From Sulfurimonas sp. HSL-1656 (GTDB taxonomy: Bacteria; Campylobacterota; Campylobacteria; Campylobacterales; Sulfurimonadaceae), in NCBI RefSeq assembly GCF_039645585.1, contig NZ_CP147915.1, positions 868,001 to 932,000 of the forward strand: DNA of 64,000 bases, written 5' to 3'. Within the stretch, counting starts at the first letter, position 1, and every line of letters starts with the position of its first letter. The position numbers and the translations under genes were made by a program. The notes under the pieces were generated by a model. The model saw only the letters and a program-made list of their open reading frames with translations. It was not told the DNA's origin and ran no database searches. Below are positions 995-44,913 of the stretch, one piece after another.

Positions 995-2433
995 CCCCGG
1001 CGGCTCTGCAGACACTGGCGGTCGTGACCAACCTCGCGCTGGTGCTGACGCTGGGATGGTATCTCATCCTCAACCTGCAGTGGTACAGCTACAAGCTCGA
1101 GCGCGTCGTGCTCAACCACCACAAACGCAGCTGGCACCTTTTTTACTTCGTCACCCCTTTTCTCGCCTATTTCGTTCTGGGCGAATTTTTCCCGCTCTTT
1201 TTCCTCCTCTATCTGGGGGCCTTTATCTGGTGGTACGTGCGCCTGGACAAGAAGCTGGTTCTGACCTGGCGGGTCAAACGTTTCCTCATCCTGCTCGCTG
1301 CGCTGGCGCTGTTCGGCGATTTCCTCTGCCTTATCAAGAGCTGCGGTACGCTCCCCCTTTTCCTCCCGCTTCTGCTCGCGTGGCTGCTTTCGACGGGGAT
1401 AGAAAAGTTTCTCTTCCTCGCCTATAAGCGGGAGGCGCAGCGCAAACTGGCCCGGCTGGAAAACCTGACGGTTGTCGCCGTGACGGGGAGCTACGGCAAA
1501 ACGAGCATGAAGAACTTCATCGCCCAGCTGCTCGGGACGCAGTTCGAGGTTTACATGACGCCGCGCAGCGTCAATACCCTCGGCGGGATCATCAAAGATA
1601 TCAACGAAGCCCTTCCCGAAACGGCCCGGGTATACGTCTGCGAAGCGGGCGCGCGCCGTCCCGGGGATATCCTCGAGATCGCGCAGCTGGTCGCACCGCA
1701 CTATGCCGTCGTCGGCAAGGTCGGCCCGCAGCACCTGGAGTATTTCGGCGACCTGGAGACGATCGTGCGCACCAAGCTGGAGCTGATCCAGTCGCCGCGT
1801 CTGAAAGCGGCGTTCGTCCACTATGAAGCGACGGAAGAACCGCATGAAAACGTCCGTTTCTTCGGAACGGAGATCGAAAACATCGCCGCCGACCTGGAGG
1901 GGACGGCGTTCGACCTCGCCCTTGACGGGGAGCAGTTGCATCTGCACGCCCCGGTGCTCGGGGGCTTCAACGCCATCAATATCGAGGCCGCCGTGCTGAT
2001 CGCCCGGGCGGTGGGGATGGATGATGCCGCCATCACCCGCGGGGTGGAAGCCCTGAAACCGGTCGAACACCGCCTGCAGCGCATCGATGCCGGCGGAAAG
2101 ATCATCCTTGACGACGGCTATAACGGCAATATCGACGGGATGAAAGAGGGGATCCGCCTCTGTGCTTTGCACTCCGGGCGCAAGGTGATCGTCACCCCTG
2201 GCCTCGTGGAGAGCACGGAAGCCCTCAACCGCGAACTGATCGAAGCGATCAACGGGGTGTTCGACCTCGTGATCGTCACCGGGAAGCTCAATGCGGCGCA
2301 GTTCAAGGCGCAGCTGAAGATCGCCGACGCTCTCTACCTTGAAGAGAAGAGTACCCTGACCGCCGTCCTGGCCGAAAAGACCCGTCCAGGCGATATCATC
2401 TACTTCGCCAACGACGCCCCGAACTTTATCTAG
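991..2433 (+). CDS. murF: MurF-type Mur ligase with N-terminal membrane segments
   Basis: UDP-N-acetylmuramoyl-tripeptide:D-alanyl-D-alanine ligase, 480 residues. It would attach the D-Ala-D-Ala made by the upstream Ddl. The first ~150 residues are mostly hydrophobic and look like several membrane helices, which classical MurF lacks. The Mur ligase core follows: a P-loop TGSYGKTS near residue 165 (classical form GTNGKTT), the central domain with a CEAGAR segment and VGPQHLEYF, and the C-terminal domain around ILDDGYNGN. The GTG start overlaps the previous gene by 4 bases. The role is inferred from domain order and the ddl neighbourhood. Confidence 0.87.
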   Translation: MTPAALQTLAVVTNLALVLTLGWYLILNLQWYSYKLERVVLNHHKRSWHLFYFVTPFLAYFVLGEFFPLFFLLYLGAFIWWYVRLDKKLVLTWRVKRFLILLAALALFGDFLCLIKSCGTLPLFLPLLLAWLLSTGIEKFLFLAYKREAQRKLARLENLTVVAVTGSYGKTSMKNFIAQLLGTQFEVYMTPRSVNTLGGIIKDINEALPETARVYVCEAGARRPGDILEIAQLVAPHYAVVGKVGPQHLEYFGDLETIVRTKLELIQSPRLKAAFVHYEATEEPHENVRFFGTEIENIAADLEGTAFDLALDGEQLHLHAPVLGGFNAINIEAAVLIARAVGMDDAAITRGVEALKPVEHRLQRIDAGGKIILDDGYNGNIDGMKEGIRLCALHSGRKVIVTPGLVESTEALNRELIEAINGVFDLVIVTGKLNAAQFKAQLKIADALYLEEKSTLTAVLAEKTRPGDIIYFANDAPNFI

Positions 2434-2468
2434 GGGCCTCCGGTAACCGACGGCAAATTATTTTGTAA

Positions 2469-2474
2469 TATAAT
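2469..2474 (+). promoter_or_regulatory. -10 box (TATAAT) for the 2514 gene
   Basis: A perfect TATAAT in an AT-rich patch, 39 bases before the ATG at 2514. The 80-base gap after murF therefore appears to start a new transcription unit. No convincing -35 box is visible, as is common in Campylobacterota. A ribosome site AAAGGAG precedes the ATG. Confidence 0.6.
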
Positions 2475-2513
2475 ACGGGCATTATCAACCGCCCCATAGC
2501 CAAAGGAGCCCCC

Positions 2514-4745
2514 ATGCAATTTCTTCTCAAGCTTTTCAAAGCCCTGAACTCCGCCCAAAGCCCCTGGCAGGTGACACTGGCGATCACGCTCGGGATGATC
2601 GCGGGACTGACGCCGATCAGCGGCCTGCAGAATGCGGTAATCCTGCTGATTGCCTTCCTGCTCAATATCCACCTGGGGCTCTTCTTCGTCTCGGCAGCGC
2701 TTTTCGCCGGTATCGGCTACCTCTTCGACCCCTGGTTCGAACAGCTCGGCTACGCCATTCTCAGCAGCGAAGGGCTGCAGGGACTCTGGACGGGCTTTTA
2801 CAACAACAGCTTCGTCCGCCTGACGCACTTCAACAATACCCTGGTCATGGGGGCGACAGTCGTCTCCCTGCTGCTGGCCGTACCGCTCTACCTCCTGCTG
2901 GGCTTTCTGATCGGGCGTTACCGTACCGTGCTGGCGGCATTCCTGGAACGGCGACCCGTCCTGGGGACCTTCGGTTTCCTCAAAGCGACGACGCACCTGG
3001 ATCCGACGGTGCGCTGGTGGGGTGCGGGCCTCTACGTCGCCGGAGGGGGGATCGTCACTGCCGTCGCGCTGCTGGTCATCGACCCGCTGCTCAAATGGAC
3101 GGTGGAAACGGGCGGCAGTTTCGCGCTGCAGCGTGATGTCCGTGTCGGCGCCGTCGATACCGATTTCAGCAAAGGCGCTGTCACGCTTCACCGCCTCGAA
3201 GTCGCGGGCAAAAAAGAGGGGGTCGATGCCGTTTCCGCGGACCTGATCAGTTTTGATGCCGATCTGGCGGCACTGCTGATGGACAAAGTACACATCGAGA
3301 AGATGATCATCAGCGGCGTCGGCTTCGATACCCCGGCGACACTGAAAAAATCCCCGGCGGAAGCAAAGGCGGCGGCGTCGGAAGAGGGTGCAGAAAGCGC
3401 ATTCGCCCTCCCGACTTTTGAGTTCCCCGACCCCAAGACCCTCATTGCCAAAGCGGACCTGCAGTCGGTCAAGGTCTACAACGATGCGCAAAAAGAGATC
3501 GGCGAGATCAAGGCGCGCTGGGAGAAAGCCTCCAAGGAGGAACTGACCGCTGACAGCCTCTCCGATCTGCAGGCCGATCTGGACAAGCTCAAAACGATGA
3601 GCCAGTCAAAAGACCCGCAGTCGATGATCAAACTGGCCCAGGAGGCCAAGGCGTTCAAAGCAAAAGTAGAGGCACGTAAAAAGGCGCTCGCGCAGCTCAA
3701 GGCGGATTTCGACAACGACCGCAAACGCATTGCCTCATTGATGCAGCAGGTTAAAGACGCCCCGATGGCAGATTATAACCGCCTCAAATCGACCTATACC
3801 CTCGACGGGAACGGGGCGCTCAACGTCATCGGAGGACTCTTCGGCGAGAAGATCAAGGGCTACCTGGCGATGGCGCGCGAGTACTACGCGATGGTCTCTC
3901 CCTACCTCGGCAGTGCCGGGGGAGAGAACCCGCCGGAGGAGGCGGTACCGCCGCGGGGCGAAGGGCGCTGGATACGCTACCCGCAGACCGTGCCGAGCCC
4001 GGACATGCTGGTGGCCCTGACCCAGATCGACGGCCTCTTCAAAAGCCAGGCCTTCTCCGGCACCGTTAACGACATCTCTGACAACCAGAAGGCGCTGGGG
4101 CGCCCGCTGACGTTCAAGGCGACGAGTGACGGCCCGACGGTCAAGGGGCTCGTGCTTTCCGGCGAAGACAACCGCCTGGGCGACACGGTAAAGGACAGTG
4201 TCAACTTCAAGGCGATGCAAATTCCGCTGGATGCACTCGATATGAAACCGGTCATGCTGGACAAGAGCAACATGGCCATGACGGGAACGCTCAGCCTCAG
4301 CGACGCTTCTGCGCTTACCGGAAACGGCAGCTTCGCCTTCAGCAACGCGGCTATCACGGCCGAGGGGCTCAGCGGCAAAACGGGCGAGATCGTCTCGGGT
4401 ATTTTGAGCGGAATCTCCGCGTTCAAGCTTGACACGGCCCTGGGCGGGACACTGACGGCACCGACCATCGGCGTCACATCCGACCTGGACCGCCAGATCT
4501 CCCAGGGGCTCGGCAAAGCGATGGGCAAAGAGCTTGAAAAGTACCAGGGTGAACTCAAGTCGCTGCTGGGCGGGGACACCGCGGCGCAGCTGGCCGACCT
4601 GAAAACGTCGGAGTCCGGTATCGCCGACGTCAACAAGCTTGTCGGCGACCAGAACACGATGCTCGGCAAGCTCGCGGAGGAAGCGGCCAAACTGGCCGGC
4701 GGCGGCGCGGTCGGCGACAAACTCAAAGGCGCGCTTCCGTTCTAG
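2514..4745 (+). CDS. TIGR03546/TIGR03545-like fused membrane protein
   Basis: A 743-residue envelope protein. Residues 1-~150 hold several membrane helices and resemble the small TIGR03546 family (DUF2062-like). A further membrane helix near 175-190 anchors a long extracytoplasmic part resembling TIGR03545, with an AsmA-like start (DVRVGAVDTDF) and a Lys/Ala/Glu-rich coiled coil at about 330-410. In most genomes I recall, the two families are adjacent separate genes, so this looks like a fusion. Function is unknown; AsmA-like proteins are often tied to outer-membrane lipid or protein handling. It has its own promoter and sits between wall genes and a secreted thioredoxin-like gene. Confidence 0.75.
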   Translation: MQFLLKLFKALNSAQSPWQVTLAITLGMIAGLTPISGLQNAVILLIAFLLNIHLGLFFVSAALFAGIGYLFDPWFEQLGYAILSSEGLQGLWTGFYNNSFVRLTHFNNTLVMGATVVSLLLAVPLYLLLGFLIGRYRTVLAAFLERRPVLGTFGFLKATTHLDPTVRWWGAGLYVAGGGIVTAVALLVIDPLLKWTVETGGSFALQRDVRVGAVDTDFSKGAVTLHRLEVAGKKEGVDAVSADLISFDADLAALLMDKVHIEKMIISGVGFDTPATLKKSPAEAKAAASEEGAESAFALPTFEFPDPKTLIAKADLQSVKVYNDAQKEIGEIKARWEKASKEELTADSLSDLQADLDKLKTMSQSKDPQSMIKLAQEAKAFKAKVEARKKALAQLKADFDNDRKRIASLMQQVKDAPMADYNRLKSTYTLDGNGALNVIGGLFGEKIKGYLAMAREYYAMVSPYLGSAGGENPPEEAVPPRGEGRWIRYPQTVPSPDMLVALTQIDGLFKSQAFSGTVNDISDNQKALGRPLTFKATSDGPTVKGLVLSGEDNRLGDTVKDSVNFKAMQIPLDALDMKPVMLDKSNMAMTGTLSLSDASALTGNGSFAFSNAAITAEGLSGKTGEIVSGILSGISAFKLDTALGGTLTAPTIGVTSDLDRQISQGLGKAMGKELEKYQGELKSLLGGDTAAQLADLKTSESGIADVNKLVGDQNTMLGKLAEEAAKLAGGGAVGDKLKGALPF

Positions 4746-4783
4746 GAGTGTTGCCGGGTAGACTACAGGAAAATGGGAGAACA

Positions 4784-5296
4784 ATGAAAAGAGTAATCAT
4801 AATGGCGGCGGCGCTGCTGCTGATGTTCGGGGCGGCGGATGCCGCGGAGATGTTTACGCTCAAAGCGGCGGGCGAGAAGACGATCGTTGCGACGGAACTG
4901 TCCAACGGCATGCGTTTCAAAGGGTACGAGGGCAAACCGGTACTGGTGAACTTCTTCGGCAAACAGTGCCGCTACTGCAAGAAAGAGATCCCGCACCTCG
5001 TCGCAATGGAAAAACGCTACGGGAACAGAGTCGGCATTTTCGGTATCCATATGCAGGGACGCATGATGCCGCAGGACCGCATGCAATTGGCAGGGGCGGC
5101 AGGGTTCAACTACCCCGTATTCGAATACGAGGACAATATGGCGATCGTCCAGCATATCGGCTCACGGGCGCGTTTCAACGGCAGTATCCCCTTCAACATC
5201 ATCTTTAACGGCAAAGGCGAGGTTTCCGAGATCGTCCCGGGCTATCTGAGCGATAAGGACCTTGAGATGATCTTCGACGAACTGCTGAAGAAGTGA
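4784..5296 (+). CDS. secreted thioredoxin-like (TlpA/ResA-type) protein
   Basis: A 170-residue thiol-disulfide protein. The signal peptide ends around AADA-AE at residue 20, so it acts in the periplasm. The redox motif is Cys62-Arg-Tyr-Cys65, preceded by the VNFFGK strand typical of TlpA/ResA proteins; the cis-proline region is GSIPFN. The frame is open upstream to a GTG at 4748, but the ATG at 4784 has a GGGAGA ribosome site and begins the signal peptide. It may reduce or isomerise disulfides of exported or haem proteins; no partner is obvious nearby. TRAP permease genes follow 10 bases later. Confidence 0.85.
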   Translation: MKRVIIMAAALLLMFGAADAAEMFTLKAAGEKTIVATELSNGMRFKGYEGKPVLVNFFGKQCRYCKKEIPHLVAMEKRYGNRVGIFGIHMQGRMMPQDRMQLAGAAGFNYPVFEYEDNMAIVQHIGSRARFNGSIPFNIIFNGKGEVSEIVPGYLSDKDLEMIFDELLKK

Positions 5297-5306
5297 TCTG
5301 CCGGAT

Positions 5307-5813
5307 ATGACAGAGCAGGGGAAGTTTGCCTTTATCCGGCTGCTGATCCGTACGGTCGGCGCCTTGAGCGCAGCCGTCCTGGGCATGCTGGTGCTCCTGA
5401 TCGTCTTTGACGCCACCCGACGCTACCTCTTCCATGAGGGCTCCGTCGCGCTGCAGGAGCTGGAGTGGCACCTCTTCGACGTAGTCATCATGCTCGGCGT
5501 CGCCTATGCGATGCACCGGGGGGCGCATGTCCGCGTCGATATCTTTTACGACCGTTTTTCCGACCGGACCAAGCATCTTGTCAACGTGGTGACGATGCTC
5601 TTTTTCGTGCTGCCGGTTTCCGTGCTGATCCTCTATGTCAGTTTCGACTTTGTCATGATGAGTTTTACCCAGATGGAGGCCTCATCCGATCCGGGCGGAC
5701 TGCCGTACCGTTATCTCGTCAAAGCGCTCATTCCCCTCGCGTTTGCGCTGCTGATCCTGCAGGCGCTGCGTGAGCTGGTGAATGCCTGGCATGCACTGAA
5801 GGATAACGTGTGA
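5307..5813 (+). CDS. dctQ: TRAP transporter small permease (DctQ)
   Basis: A 168-residue inner-membrane protein with four predicted helices, matching the DctQ family. It would pair with DctM in a tripartite ATP-independent periplasmic transporter, usually for organic acids and driven by the sodium gradient. Family-like features are the ELEWHLFDVVIMLGVAYAM segment and the RVDIFYDRF motif after helix 2. It overlaps dctM by 4 bases (GTGA), so the two are made together. The periplasmic binding protein DctP is not encoded next to it or elsewhere in the window. Confidence 0.9.
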   Translation: MTEQGKFAFIRLLIRTVGALSAAVLGMLVLLIVFDATRRYLFHEGSVALQELEWHLFDVVIMLGVAYAMHRGAHVRVDIFYDRFSDRTKHLVNVVTMLFFVLPVSVLILYVSFDFVMMSFTQMEASSDPGGLPYRYLVKALIPLAFALLILQALRELVNAWHALKDNV

Positions 5814-7093
5814 TCGCGCTGGCCATGTTCGTGATCGCGCTGGCGCTGCTGCTTTCGGGCATTCCCGTCGCCTTCGTCTTCGGCGGGGTTGCGCTGCTCT
5901 TTGCGCTGCTGATCCCCGAGATGGGATTGGGGGTCTTCAGCCTGCTGCCGTTCCGCATCTACGGCATCATGGGCAATACGACCCTGATGGCCGTCCCGCT
6001 CTTCATCGCGATGGGGCTGATCCTTGAGAAGTCGAAAATGGCCGAGAAGCTGCTGGAGACGATGAGCGGCCTTTTCGGCGGGCTGCGCGGCGGACTGGCC
6101 GTCAGCGTCGTGCTGGTCGGGACGATCCTGGCCGCTTCGACGGGTATCGTCAGCGCTTCGGTCGTGATGATGAGCATTATCGCCCTGCCGCTGATGCTGC
6201 AGGCCGGGTATAACAAGGGCCTTGCCTCGGGGACGGTCGCGGCCAGCGGCACACTCGGGCAGATCATTCCGCCCTCGATCATTCTCATCATCCTCGGCGA
6301 CGTCATGAACGTCAGCGTCGGGGAACTCTTCATGGGGGCGGTGCTGCCGGGGCTGGTGCTCGTCGGCCTCTATATCGTCTATATCCTGGTCTATGCGGCG
6401 TTGAAACCCGAAGCGGCCCCGGCGGCGTCGCAGGGCGAACGTGTCGGTATTTTCAGAGCTTTGGCCGCGATCGCACCGCCGCTGCTGCTGATGGTCGCGG
6501 TCCTCGGCTCCATTTTCGCCGGGATCGCGTCACCGACGGAATCGGCGGCATTCGGCGTCGTCGGCGCGCTGCTGCTCAGCGCCCTCAACGGCACGTTCGG
6601 CCGCTCCATGGTCAGCTATGCGCTGCTGGAGACGGTCAAGCTCAGCGGGATGATCTTTATGATCCTGATCGGAGCGACGGCCTTCAGCCTCGTGTTCAAC
6701 GAACTCGGCGGGAGCGATCTTGTCTTGGAGTTCTTCAGTCACGATATCGGGAACGTCTGGGTCTTTATCGGGGTCGCGATGCTGGCCATCTTCATCCTCG
6801 GTTTCTTCATCGACTTCATCGAGATCTCCTTTATCGTCGTACCGATCCTCGTGCCGGTCATGCACGCGTTCGGGATCGATCCGGTCTGGTTCGCGATCCT
6901 GATCGCGCTGAACCTGCAGGCCTCCTTCCTTACCCCGCCGTTCGGACTGGCGCTCTTCTTCCTCAAGGGGGCCGCCGGGACGATGGTGACGACGCTGCAG
7001 ATCTACCGGGGAATCATCCCTTTTATCCTGCTGCAGCTGCTGGCGATCGTTATCGTTATGCTCTTCCCCGACCTCGTCTTCGCGTTCATATAG
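5810..7093 (+). CDS. dctM: TRAP transporter large permease (DctM)
   Basis: A 427-residue polytopic membrane protein of the DctM family, usual length, with about a dozen hydrophobic helices. It is the transport channel of a TRAP system. Recognisable parts are TTLMAVPLFIAMG near the N-terminus, the GTLGQIIPPSI loop, ITSPTESAAFG-like IASPTESAAFG, and the C-terminal TPPFGLALFFLKG motif. The GTG start overlaps dctQ. The substrate cannot be told from sequence without the binding protein. Confidence 0.93.
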   Translation: MIALAMFVIALALLLSGIPVAFVFGGVALLFALLIPEMGLGVFSLLPFRIYGIMGNTTLMAVPLFIAMGLILEKSKMAEKLLETMSGLFGGLRGGLAVSVVLVGTILAASTGIVSASVVMMSIIALPLMLQAGYNKGLASGTVAASGTLGQIIPPSIILIILGDVMNVSVGELFMGAVLPGLVLVGLYIVYILVYAALKPEAAPAASQGERVGIFRALAAIAPPLLLMVAVLGSIFAGIASPTESAAFGVVGALLLSALNGTFGRSMVSYALLETVKLSGMIFMILIGATAFSLVFNELGGSDLVLEFFSHDIGNVWVFIGVAMLAIFILGFFIDFIEISFIVVPILVPVMHAFGIDPVWFAILIALNLQASFLTPPFGLALFFLKGAAGTMVTTLQIYRGIIPFILLQLLAIVIVMLFPDLVFAFI

Positions 7094-7106: not shown

Positions 7107-7688
7107 ATGTCTGCCAGAATCACAGCGCAAAGACGGTTGTGGAAGGCAATACGGTCCAGGACTGGACTGGGAATTTTGTTGTCGGTTCTCCTGTTTCAGG
7201 GCTGTGCGAATGTCGTGCGTTTCGAGAAGCCCTCTCTGGTAGCACATGCCGAAAAGCTTGACGGCTCGGACGACGTCCTTTATTATTCCATCGGAATCGA
7301 CTTCACCGAGACGGTAGCACCCGACATTGCAAAAGTGCGCCTGAAATTTACTCCCGAAACAGCGTCGTATGCGTTGTACGAACTGACGCCGGCAGTGGCG
7401 TCGCGCTATCTCGAACGATATCAGCCGCCGCCGCAATGGCCCGAAGCGTGGAAGCAGAGGGCGGCAAAAGACGATGCCTATGAGGGCAAAGGGATTTACA
7501 TGAAATTTGCAGCGGGGCGGCTGGAGCGTCTCGGGCTCTGTTCGCACTGTGCCGGAGGGAGGGCAGCACCCATTGTCGGCACAGCGGACGGCGGTGCTTT
7601 TTACGCGCTGCCGCTGACGGAGCGGCAGATGGTCGAACTTTTCGGCGCACCTCTCAAACGTATGAAGGTACGTGAAGTCTATTACTAA
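7107..7688 (+). CDS. hypothetical lipoprotein
   Basis: A 193-residue protein of unknown function. The N-terminus has basic residues, a hydrophobic stretch and a lipobox LLFQGC, so the mature protein should be lipidated at the Cys near residue 33 and sit in the periplasm or outer membrane. A CSHC motif occurs near residue 150. A TTG at 7104 is one codon upstream, but ATG 7107 is preferred. It follows the TRAP genes by 13 bases and could be read from the same transcript. No family was recognised. Confidence 0.75.
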   Translation: MSARITAQRRLWKAIRSRTGLGILLSVLLFQGCANVVRFEKPSLVAHAEKLDGSDDVLYYSIGIDFTETVAPDIAKVRLKFTPETASYALYELTPAVASRYLERYQPPPQWPEAWKQRAAKDDAYEGKGIYMKFAAGRLERLGLCSHCAGGRAAPIVGTADGGAFYALPLTERQMVELFGAPLKRMKVREVYY

Positions 7689-7703
7689 ATCCGGGGAACA
7701 GTG

Positions 7704-43060: not shown

Positions 43061-43912
43061 TTAGCCGACGGGCGTATCGGTCTGAAGGTAGTCGCCGTGC
43101 ACCCACCCCTCGCGGCAGATGCGGACCTTTTGCCACACCCCGTTGCGTTCGACCAGTTCGACCCGGGTCCCTTTCTCGATCGGATCGCCTGCGAGCGGGG
43201 CGCTTCCCGAGGGTTGGGCCCGGACGTTTAGGAGGCTGGCGGTGACCGTCGCATCGGCTGTTTCATCCTCCGCTATCCCGGTATCGGCATGGCGCCCCGT
43301 CAGGATTCTGTCGCGCAGGCGATCCAGGGGGAAGGCTGGCCCCGGGTCTATCTTGCGGCCGGGGGCGATCTCTTCATGGCCGACGATAGTGCGGATGCCG
43401 TAGCTGTTTTTCAGAATCCGGCACACCTCAAAACAGGCCTCGATCTGTTCGGCAGTATAGGTGTGCCAGTAGGAGGGGACCGTCTGGTTCCGGTGGATGG
43501 CCTGGATGACCTCCGCGTCTTCGTAGCGTCTGCCGAACCAGGCGAGGTAGCCGCCGCCGGAGGGGGTGAGCTCGCCGGCGTTGACGAGCTCGATCCCGAT
43601 GGCATAGCGGTTGAGACTGCTGCGCTCCTGCCAGCGGCTCGTACCGGCATGCCAGGCGATGCGGCCGAAATCGACCATCTGGACAATGCTGCCGTCGCGG
43701 TCGATGATCAGGTGCGCGGATGACTCAATATCAGGGTTTTTGAACGTGTTGACGGCCGAGGAGAGGGTGGGCCCCGCCGTAAAATGAATGACGATAGTGT
43801 CAGGCTCCCCTGTATCAAAAGGACCGCTGTCTTTGTGCTCGCAGGGATCGAAGAGGACCTCTTTGTCAAAAAGTGCGCCGGTCAGTCTGTTGCTTGCTAT
43901 AGTGAGTGCCAT
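43061..43912 (-). CDS. N-acetylmuramoyl-L-alanine amidase (type 2) with SH3 domain
   Basis: A 283-residue peptidoglycan hydrolase. The amidase_2 domain (~35-190) has the zinc His in VIHFTAG, the YAIGIELVN strand, and GHEEIAPGRKIDPGP with the second His, Lys and Asp. A C-terminal SH3b-like domain (~215-280: SLLNVRAQPSG...VWQKVRICREGWVHGDYL) would bind the wall. There is no signal peptide, unlike most cell-wall housekeeping amidases, so it resembles a phage endolysin. It follows two small membrane or secreted protein genes in the same operon. Confidence 0.88.
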   Translation of the reverse strand: MALTIASNRLTGALFDKEVLFDPCEHKDSGPFDTGEPDTIVIHFTAGPTLSSAVNTFKNPDIESSAHLIIDRDGSIVQMVDFGRIAWHAGTSRWQERSSLNRYAIGIELVNAGELTPSGGGYLAWFGRRYEDAEVIQAIHRNQTVPSYWHTYTAEQIEACFEVCRILKNSYGIRTIVGHEEIAPGRKIDPGPAFPLDRLRDRILTGRHADTGIAEDETADATVTASLLNVRAQPSGSAPLAGDPIEKGTRVELVERNGVWQKVRICREGWVHGDYLQTDTPVG

Positions 43913-43915
43913 GAT

Positions 43916-44422
43916 CTATCCTCTTGTTCTGGATTGGGGGTCCGGTGCATTACCGGACTCGTTGCTGCCGTTACCGGCTTGGGAAAGCGTATTTGCTTTT
44001 TCTTTCTCCTGAAGCGAACGGAAAAGGTAGCCGGCGATGGCACCGAGGACACCGATCGCGGCCGTGAGCTGTTCATTGGTCTCGACGACCAGGACGAGAA
44101 TGATCGTGCCGAAGATGATGATGTTCAGCCCGGCCAGGTGGATGATGTCGCTCGTATCGTACTCCTTGTGCCGGAGGAACATGAATGAGACGGTGAACAT
44201 TACGACGGACAGAAGGGAGAGCGCAAGGACATAGTAACGTTCATTCTCCATCTTGAGGATGATCAGGTCCGCCTGGGTTTTGAGGTATTCGTTGTCGGTT
44301 GGTGCGGGCTGGATCTGCTGCTGTTCAGCCTGCTGCGGCGAGTAGGCGGGGAAAGTGTCCTCACCGAGGGCATGGCAAGCAAGGCCCAATGTCAGAAAAA
44401 GAACAATCAAAATGCGTGTCAC
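43916..44422 (-). CDS. membrane protein upstream of the amidase
   Basis: A 168-residue protein. A signal peptide (ending CHALGE) is followed by a Gln/Pro-rich stretch, then three hydrophobic helices at about 60-140, and a hydrophilic tail rich in Asn/Ser/Gln. No family was recognised. It overlaps the 107-residue gene by ATGA and ends 3 bases before the amidase start. Its membrane nature would allow a holin-like or transporter role for the amidase, but that is only inference. Confidence 0.65.
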   Translation of the reverse strand: MTRILIVLFLTLGLACHALGEDTFPAYSPQQAEQQQIQPAPTDNEYLKTQADLIILKMENERYYVLALSLLSVVMFTVSFMFLRHKEYDTSDIIHLAGLNIIIFGTIILVLVVETNEQLTAAIGVLGAIAGYLFRSLQEKEKANTLSQAGNGSNESGNAPDPQSRTRG

Positions 44423-44742
44423 GGTTCTCTCCTTTCCCAGTAACGGATGATGCCGTCGTAATAATCGGCTTCATCGTAGCGTCTTGCCTGCAGGGCGCTT
44501 GCGCGCAGTTCCCGCATCCGCGTTATCCATGCCTGCTGGGTGGCAGGATCCTGCCGGTTGAGTCGTGCGATGGCGTCACGCTGCTGCTGCGTCAGTCCGT
44601 CGCTGCGCTGGGGGGGAGCATACTGCTGCACATTCGTACTGCCGGGAGCATTGAGCGGGACATTGTATTTATTCAATGCGGCGCTCCAGAGGACACTGGG
44701 GGGCAGAATAAGGGCCGTCAGAATAAGAAAGAACGTTTTCAT
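44419..44742 (-). CDS. small secreted hypothetical protein
   Basis: A 107-residue protein with a clean signal peptide (LTALILPPSVLWSA) and a soluble helical C-terminus rich in Arg, Gln and Ala (TQQQRDAIARLNRQDP...YWERREP). It is first in a three-gene operon with a membrane protein and an amidase. The ribosome site is GAGGTGAC. No family was recognised. Confidence 0.65.
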   Translation of the reverse strand: MKTFFLILTALILPPSVLWSAALNKYNVPLNAPGSTNVQQYAPPQRSDGLTQQQRDAIARLNRQDPATQQAWITRMRELRASALQARRYDEADYYDGIIRYWERREP

Positions 44743-44913
44743 GTCACCTCCTTTCGGACAAGGGAGTGTTCCGAGCCATTCTGTGAAATAGATAGAAACA
44801 GTTTATATTACAACAGAACAGATAAATCTAAAAAATAAGGAAAGCGCGGAAGGGTGATGCACCGCAATAGCCGTTGAAACGCGGCCGAAAATGAATAGTG
44901 AGGGAGGGAAACG

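What the first reader, a model, noticed from the sequence alone, without database searches (positions are those of the whole stretch)
43061..44742. Endolysin-like cassette: signal-less amidase with two small envelope proteins
The amidase has a catalytic domain plus SH3 domain but no signal peptide, as phage endolysins do. Upstream, in a tightly coupled operon, are a three-helix membrane protein and a secreted protein. This could be a domesticated lysis module (DNA or vesicle release, competition) rather than wall housekeeping. No other phage gene is nearby.
Basis: inference. Interest (0 to 1): 0.5.

Follow-up and report, generated by a model that had tools for sequence, protein, structure and literature searches.

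The report
Transferable lysis cassette with captured endolysin
A bacterium carries a phage-type cell-wall-cutting enzyme behind two small envelope proteins, and relatives of those two proteins sit beside quite different destructive enzymes, so the trio looks like a swappable self-destruct module rather than ordinary wall maintenance.

Summary
The three genes are real, tightly spaced and at the stated place. The amidase (Amidase_2 + SH3, no signal peptide by hydropathy) belongs to a family common in phages: 152 relatives in viral contigs, the best 52% identical; among sampled relatives it occurs only in this genus. The two upstream genes form a conserved pair (exported ~107-aa protein; small membrane protein with signal-like N-terminus) found intact in six sampled Campylobacterota genomes, plus one broken copy. 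In all six, the pair lies within 3-77 nt of hydrolases without signal peptides (read by eye) that differ between loci: amidase here, lysozyme-like enzyme, Tle1-like lipase, MBL enzyme of the LmuA/Avs1a kind (once followed by a caspase), papain-like protease. Caspase-MBL nuclease loci (canu) are published anti-phage systems. Three sister genomes keep an intact amidase at the same place without the pair, a fourth a broken one. In the window, promoter region, pair and about the first 85 codons of the amidase look imported together. Best reading: a constant membrane pair (sensor or holin-like gate) coupled to exchangeable killing enzymes, here a captured endolysin, for altruistic lysis, perhaps against phage. 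Function and topology are untested.

The parts
44419..44742 (-). Gene 1: exported small protein, 107 aa; after the signal-like segment begins A-L-N-K-Y-x-V-P
   Evidence: ORF; one hydrophobic segment, 3-20; family of 7 members, leave-one-out HMM E = 4.4e-6 for the window member
43916..44422 (-). Gene 2: membrane protein, 168 aa; signal-like segment, acidic segment, two to three TM helices, charged tail; motif LTAxxGxLGAIAGYLF
   Evidence: ORF overlapping gene 1 by 4 nt; hydropathy; family of 6, leave-one-out E = 3e-23; single-sequence AlphaFold model helical but low confidence, pLDDT 62
43061..43912 (-). Gene 3: signal-less N-acetylmuramoyl-L-alanine amidase with C-terminal SH3 domain (endolysin kin), 283 aa
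   Evidence: Pfam; H43, E108, H179, K187, D189 invariant in 5 aligned sequences; groups with a viral amidase
43337..43810 (-). Amidase_2 catalytic domain of gene 3
   Evidence: Pfam residues 35-192
43082..43231 (-). Bacterial SH3 domain of gene 3
   Evidence: Pfam residues 228-277
43643..44913 (-). Probable imported segment: upstream region, genes 1 and 2, and about the first 85-90 codons of the amidase; breakpoints approximate
   Evidence: Upstream DNA unlike four congeners; 47 of 250 against 25 of 602 sites unique to this genome; dS 1.2-1.8 in codons 1-85

Best explanation
The three genes are one transferable operon-like unit of a constant membrane part plus an exchangeable enzyme. The constant part is an exported small protein and a small inner-membrane protein. 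The variable part is a hydrolase made without a signal peptide; here it is a phage-type endolysin captured by this genus. Proposed mechanism: at rest the pair sits closed in the inner membrane, the exported protein acting as lock or detector on the periplasmic side, and the amidase is harmless in the cytosol. When the envelope is disturbed (phage entry, loss of membrane potential, envelope stress) the membrane protein opens as a holin-like gate or signals inward; the enzyme reaches its target and the cell lyses or dies for the benefit of its kin. Shown: gene order and spacing, conservation of the pair, change of enzyme between loci, endolysin kinship of the amidase, foreign origin of the 5' block. 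Inferred: co-transcription, topology, gating, trigger, lysis, and the defence purpose.
For: Pair intact at 6 loci (1 more broken), each within 3-77 nt of a signal-less hydrolase: amidase (window), Tle1-like lipase 43 nt upstream (G025), MBL + caspase + papain-like protein (G385), MBL (G649), papain-like protein then a lysozyme-like fragment (G666), lysozyme-like enzyme (G625). The G385 MBL matches the PADLOC models LmuA 7e-72, Avs1a and RT-associated MBL; the G649 MBL matches NCBIfam Avs1a 2e-74, below that model's cut-off. A caspase with such an MBL nuclease is a published anti-phage system (canu, PMC12799240, section 8 and passages). Amidase family: 152 relatives in viral contigs, best 52%; groups with a viral amidase at 96/84. 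Foreign block of upstream region, pair and 5' amidase. Rare, scattered distribution.
Against: Three congeners keep an intact amidase under purifying selection (dN/dS 0.09-0.14 among them) without the pair. MBL, caspase and papain-like enzymes need no gate. Only two helices are clear in all six membrane proteins; a third passes the threshold in 2 of 6, so a holin-like outline and a cytosolic tail are not established. In the published canu loci the nuclease is downstream of the caspase; in G385 it is upstream, and in G649 no caspase is visible before the contig ends. The pair has no PADLOC match and the window flanks are ordinary, not a defence island. PHROGs gave no lysis family for the pair (best 0.003 for one relative, a moron membrane protein). 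None of 80 viral loci of 3.7-6.8 kb holds the pair at E <= 1. Few loci, one phylum, no control for chance neighbours.
Confidence: 0.42

Rival explanations
1. Domesticated phage lysis cassette used for release (T10SS-like): the membrane protein is a holin, the exported protein an antiholin or regulator, and a subpopulation lyses to release DNA, enzymes or vesicles.
For: Amidase is of endolysin kin; small multi-helix membrane protein beside it; another pair precedes a lysozyme-like enzyme whose relative is in a Bradyrhizobium phage, followed there by small membrane genes. Holin/endolysin/spanin clusters outside phages are established as T10SS (PMC10847048, passages). An immune-like system (LypABC) is required for lysis in gene-transfer-agent release, so defence and release can merge (PMC13236601, passages).
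Against: No spanin pair seen: the exported protein has no Cys and no second hydrophobic segment. The pair also lies beside MBL, caspase, papain-like and Tle1-like enzymes. No obvious cargo gene beside it.
Confidence: 0.22
2. The pair is an independent envelope function (stress sensor or secretion helper) that landed upstream of a resident amidase; the link has no meaning.
For: Sister genomes have the amidase without the pair; the import could be chance recombination.
Against: The foreign block includes the start of an amidase allele (70-81% identical to the congeners), so the donor probably already had the pair in front of such an amidase. The other five intact loci also carry hydrolases within 3-77 nt.
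Confidence: 0.15
3. Cytosolic peptidoglycan recycling enzyme (AmpD role).
For: AmpD-type catalytic residues; AmpD model PRK11789 at 6e-29 but below cut-off, 100.7 of 143 bits; nearest solved structures are AmpDh2 and AmpD; the only other Amidase_2 in the genome is fused to a NagZ-like domain with a signal-like N-terminus.
Against: 5 of 101 family genomes have it, all in one genus, 5 of 8 of that genus; has an SH3 domain; groups with viral enzymes.
Confidence: 0.07
4. Anti-competitor effector with its immunity proteins, delivered by an injection machine.
For: Tle1-like lipases and amidases are typical T6SS effector folds (recalled); one pair genome (G649) has an eCIS whose contig begins with the end of a papain-like protein of the kind beside other pairs; the own genome has one lone sheath-domain gene.
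Against: No VipB in 9 genomes searched; eCIS tube in 1 of 12, not in the own genome; the same pair with unlike enzymes cannot be enzyme-specific immunity.
Confidence: 0.06

Closest known systems
canu caspase-nuclease defence loci (PMC12799240; abstract, section 8 and passages read)
   Same: One pair locus (G385) has an MBL enzyme of the LmuA/Avs1a kind next to a caspase; canu loci are described as holding several genes of unknown function
   Different: Window has neither nuclease nor protease; gene order in G385 is reversed; no exported/membrane pair appeared in the parts read
Type 10 secretion / phage lysis cassettes (PMC10847048, passages read)
   Same: Signal-less peptidoglycan hydrolase of phage kin next to a small multi-helix membrane protein
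   Different: No spanins; an exported non-lipoprotein instead; the same pair also with enzymes that do not attack the wall
Zorya (PMC11890865, abstract and outline only)
   Same: Constant envelope complex with a separate effector module (idea only)
   Different: No Pfam or PADLOC match of the pair to ZorA or ZorB
NucA/trypsin conflict systems with lysozyme- and papain-like effectors (PMC7159879, section 32 and passages read)
   Same: Lysozyme-like and papain-like domains predicted there to attack peptidoglycan; 4 of 6 plasmid loci read for the G625-type enzyme hold nuclease, trypsin-like, patatin/S8 or CHAT/caspase genes
   Different: No EAD, NucA or trypsin gene in the window operon; the pair was not found in those plasmid loci

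Membership tests
Phage-type endolysin (Amidase_2 + SH3) | Amidase_2 fold with conserved zinc and catalytic residues | tested here: met
   Pfam 5.5e-30; H43, E108, H179, K187, D189 invariant in 5 sequences (residue roles recalled from AmpD)
Phage-type endolysin (Amidase_2 + SH3) | No signal peptide | tested here: met
   Hydropathy maximum 1.29; N-termini of close homologues read by eye; no predictor run
Phage-type endolysin (Amidase_2 + SH3) | Groups with viral rather than cellular amidases | tested here: met
   With viral L083 at 96/84 in an unrooted 33-row tree, 26 rows viral (22 of 80 viral loci, 4 of 52 phage records); cellular sampling thin
Phage lysis cassette / T10SS | Holin | tested here: inconclusive
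   Two to three helices; no significant PHROG match; function untested
Phage lysis cassette / T10SS | i-spanin and o-spanin | tested here: not met
   Exported protein has no Cys and no second hydrophobic segment; no spanin among PHROG matches
canu | MBL nuclease and caspase together | tested here: not met
   Neither among the three window genes; both present at the G385 pair locus
Zorya | ZorA and ZorB | tested here: not met
   No PADLOC match at 0.01, no Pfam match
T6SS or eCIS effector | Delivery machine in the genome | tested here: not met
   VipB 0 of 9 including own genome; eCIS tube absent from own genome, 1 of 12 overall
AmpD recycling amidase | Passes the AmpD equivalog cut-off | tested here: not met
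   100.7 bits against 143
Anti-phage defence system | Protects against phage in an assay | not testable with these tools
   Needs experiment

The most novel reading that the evidence does not exclude
An undescribed envelope immune system in Campylobacterota: an exported protein plus a small membrane protein senses phage attack or membrane damage and fires interchangeable killers (MBL nuclease with caspase, papain-like protease, lipase, lysozyme), and in this genome it has recruited a phage-type endolysin so that infected cells lyse early.
Probability: 0.3. Interest if true: 0.8.

Novelty: new variant of a known kind. Interest (0 to 1): 0.57.

Why it matters
It ties a captured phage endolysin to a two-gene membrane module whose other partners include enzymes of a known anti-phage kind. 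If right, it names a new constant part (sensor or gate) for effector-swapping self-destruct systems, shows cell-wall lysis used as an effector alongside nuclease and protease, and gives small three-gene units that can be tested directly in E. coli.

Tried and rejected
Housekeeping or recycling amidase: rejected as main reading because of distribution and SH3 domain. T6SS and eCIS delivery: searched, not supported in the own genome. Pair as enzyme-specific immunity: rejected because the same pair accompanies unlike enzymes.

Searches for the pair that found nothing: plasmids, phage records, viral contigs with alignment A1. With A3 one viral locus, and a follow-up that locus and one more, share only the end of the membrane protein, in small membrane proteins inside tail-gene regions; these small proteins found nothing in plasmids or phage records. 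A viral-contig scan with the window amidase alone found none; the alignment query found 152. Plasmid records with amidase relatives: 262 of 72,556, but only 3 where one place covers at least 80% of the query, the best 36% identical.

Marginal hits dropped: one search gave 5 hits, of which G000 and G385 are clear and three (E 5e-4 to 1e-3) marginal; one of these three was read and is another protein. One search gave 4: G000 and G025 clear, G044 is SecF-like by eye, G418 not read. One search gave 7: four clear, G616 with a broken membrane gene, G617 not read, G574 only its surroundings listed.

AlphaFold of the membrane protein alone was too weak to use. The 3.3 kb between ABC-F and YiaD-like genes in G027 was read as a possible hotspot: a lipoprotein-like PKD-type protein and a 157-aa protein, nothing like the pair. 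Passages of the lipocone paper PMC12419801 gave no link. After checking, I lowered the main confidence from 0.45 to 0.42 because the third helix is clear in only 2 of 6.

Full report
WHAT IS THERE. The window is part of a one-contig 2.56 Mb genome. On the minus strand lie an exported 107-aa protein, a 168-aa membrane protein and a 283-aa amidase, spaced by a 4-nt overlap and a 3-nt gap. The amidase has Amidase_2 and SH3 domains and no hydrophobic N-terminus. Its AmpD-type catalytic residues are invariant in five aligned sequences (the roles of the residues are recalled). The first two proteins match no Pfam, PHROG or NCBIfam family significantly. Names ABC-F and PrmC for flanking genes are recalled from their sequences; YiaD-like and M48 come.

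THE AMIDASE IS ENDOLYSIN KIN. In the family, 5 of 101 genomes match (E <= 1e-10), all in the window's genus, 5 of the 8 listed of that genus. In the class, 4 of 397 match (E <= 1e-12), all in the genus. One scan of genome contigs gave 13 loci: a fragment at 86% on a contig of the same length as the G056 contig, and a Sphingobacterium protein (38%) that spans nearly the whole query; the rest match parts. Viral contigs gave 152 relatives, the best 52% identical, of which 80 were kept, although a scan with the window protein alone had found none. Among 50,697 phage records 52 matched, the best about 41% identical, some annotated as lysin A or amidase. In plasmids 262 of 72,556 records matched, 3 with one place covering at least 80% of the query. 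In a 33-row tree (22 of 80 viral loci, 4 of 52 phage records, 7 cellular rows of which 3 are this genus) the genus groups with viral L083 at 96/84, apart from two cellular rows (Sphingomonas, Rhizobium). The tree is unrooted, cellular sampling is thin and I looked harder among viruses, so capture from a phage is likely but not proven. A smaller tree did not place the genus.

THE AMIDASE LIVES WITHOUT THE PAIR. In G036, G010, G027 and G056 the amidase gene lies at the same place between the YiaD-like lipoprotein gene and the 100-aa gene, and searches of these genomes find neither pair protein. G036, G010 and G027 have it intact; G056 has only a 5'-truncated, interrupted copy. The three share an AT-rich upstream region that the window lacks, and the upstream part of G056 is of the same type.

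AN IMPORTED BLOCK. Against three congeners the window's amidase is 70-81% identical in DNA in its first 270 bp and 72-94% in later 90-bp blocks. The congeners are 83-97% identical to each other in that first part. Sites unique to the window genome: 47 of 250 in the 5' part against 25 of 602 in the rest (Fisher p 4e-11, with the cut chosen; a breakpoint scan that allows for this was matched by 0 of 2000 permutations). dS in codons 1-85 is 1.2-1.8 against 0.26-0.41 among the congeners. Flanking genes are 93-96% identical to G036. So upstream region, pair and amidase start probably came in together, from a donor that already had the pair in front of such an amidase. The rest of the gene is not clean: one later block (630-720) also has 12 unique sites of 81, and its dS against G036 (0.41) exceeds that of neighbours (0.18-0.20), so more than one import, or faster change, is possible. 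dN/dS of 0.09-0.17 shows an amidase kept under selection.

THE PAIR IS A FAMILY. Searches with the membrane protein covered 101 genomes of the family, 397 of the class, 228 of the family and 175 of the family of G385; the sets overlap. They gave six genomes with an intact pair (G000, G025, G385, G649, G666, G625), the exported partner being found by reading the neighbouring frame, and G616 with an intact exported protein but a membrane gene holding a stop. Leave-one-out profiles recover the window proteins at 4.4e-6 (exported) and 3e-23 (membrane) among 10,588 six-frame segments. Six of the seven exported proteins begin, just after the signal-like segment, with L-x-[KR]-Y-x-x-P. All six membrane proteins share the motif LTAxxGxLGAIAGYLF. 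The segment after the signal-like part is acidic in 5 of 6; two helices are clear in all six, and a third passes the threshold in 2 of 6.

THE PARTNER CHANGES. Window: amidase (3 nt). G025: Tle1-like lipase 43 nt upstream, Pfam 5.7e-83; the gene downstream is an unnamed 225-aa protein 110 nt away. G385: a vWA protein and a 900-aa exported-looking protein upstream, then the pair, then (3 nt) an MBL enzyme, a caspase (3.8e-29) and a papain-like protein with a weak DUF900 alpha/beta-hydrolase match. G649: MBL (21 nt), 58% identical to that of G385, then contig end. G666: papain-like protein (12 nt), then a truncated lysozyme-like frame and an exported-looking protein. G625: lysozyme-like enzyme (77 nt) and a lipoprotein-like gene. 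The lysozyme-like label rests on homology to plasmid and phage proteins mostly annotated as peptidoglycan-binding and on a recalled motif; Pfam, PHROGs, NCBIfam and PDB sequences gave no match. The G385 MBL matches LmuA (7e-72), Avs1a and RT-associated MBL models. Published work shows that such MBL nucleases can be pro-enzymes activated by partner proteases and that a caspase-nuclease system protects E. coli against T4 (PMC12799240, abstract, section 8 and passages). There the nuclease is downstream of the caspase, in G385 upstream.

HOW IT MOST LIKELY WORKS. A conserved pair with changing destructive enzymes is the logic of effector-swapping immunity and of lysis modules. I think the pair is the trigger: the exported protein on the periplasmic side, the membrane protein as gate or relay. 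Amidase and lysozyme need passage through the inner membrane, which favours a gate; MBL, caspase and papain-like partners do not, which favours a relay. A membrane lesion plus an enzyme would satisfy both. Altruistic lysis is the likely outcome. All of this paragraph is inference, and the helix number and topology are unsettled.

AGAINST. No assay; few loci; one phylum; no control for chance neighbours; no PADLOC match for the pair; not in a defence island; amidase kept without the pair in sisters; no pair in 80 viral loci of 3.7-6.8 kb; T6SS and eCIS tube markers absent from the own genome.

KNOWN OR NEW. The amidase is a new member of a known enzyme family. The combination differs from T10SS lysis cassettes (no spanins), from canu (no nuclease or caspase here), and from Zorya (no match). 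Conflict systems with lysozyme- and papain-like effectors have been predicted (PMC7159879, section 32), but the pair was not found in six related plasmid loci. I rate it a new variant of a known kind.

Noticed in passing
G000:C1:1432913-1434385 (L060:7914-9386, minus): A 490-aa protein joins a phage/CIS tail-sheath domain (Phage_sheath_1, 1C) to a 6-O-methylguanine-DNA methyltransferase DNA-binding domain; no gp19-type tube gene was found in the genome. A sheath-domain gene with the same open-frame length lies at a similar coordinate in G036.
   Followed up: partly
G000:C1:1720168-1721895 (L030:9169-10896, minus): NagZ-like glycosidase (recalled from sequence) fused to an Amidase_2 domain, with a signal-like N-terminus.
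   Followed up: no
L026, L027, L028 and L031, directly upstream of the amidase gene: Congeners share an AT-rich upstream region holding an inverted repeat (GGTTTAT...ATAAACC in part of them, read by eye) that may be a regulated promoter; the window genome lacks it.
   Followed up: partly
L061 (G649:C81): A contig with eCIS genes (AAA ATPase, Pvc16, sheath, tube) begins with the C-terminal part of the papain-like protein type found beside the pair elsewhere.
   Followed up: partly
L041:2508-2756 and L043:4305-4550: Small membrane proteins inside viral tail-gene regions, on the opposite strand, share the GAIAGYLFG end of the membrane protein.
   Followed up: partly
L067-L072: Of six plasmid loci read for the lysozyme-like enzyme, four hold nuclease, trypsin-like, patatin/S8 or CHAT/caspase genes; six more hits were not read.
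   Followed up: partly
L003:552-1373 and 1378-6723: The Sphingobacterium amidase relative lies 4 bp from a convergent 1781-aa protein with CHAT and LCAT-like domains.
   Followed up: no
L028:4792-7029 and 7226-7699: In G027 3.3 kb of other genes, including a lipoprotein-like 745-aa protein, separate the ABC-F gene from the YiaD-like gene.
   Followed up: partly
L060:2904-5216: Four tandem similar lipoprotein-like genes.
   Followed up: no
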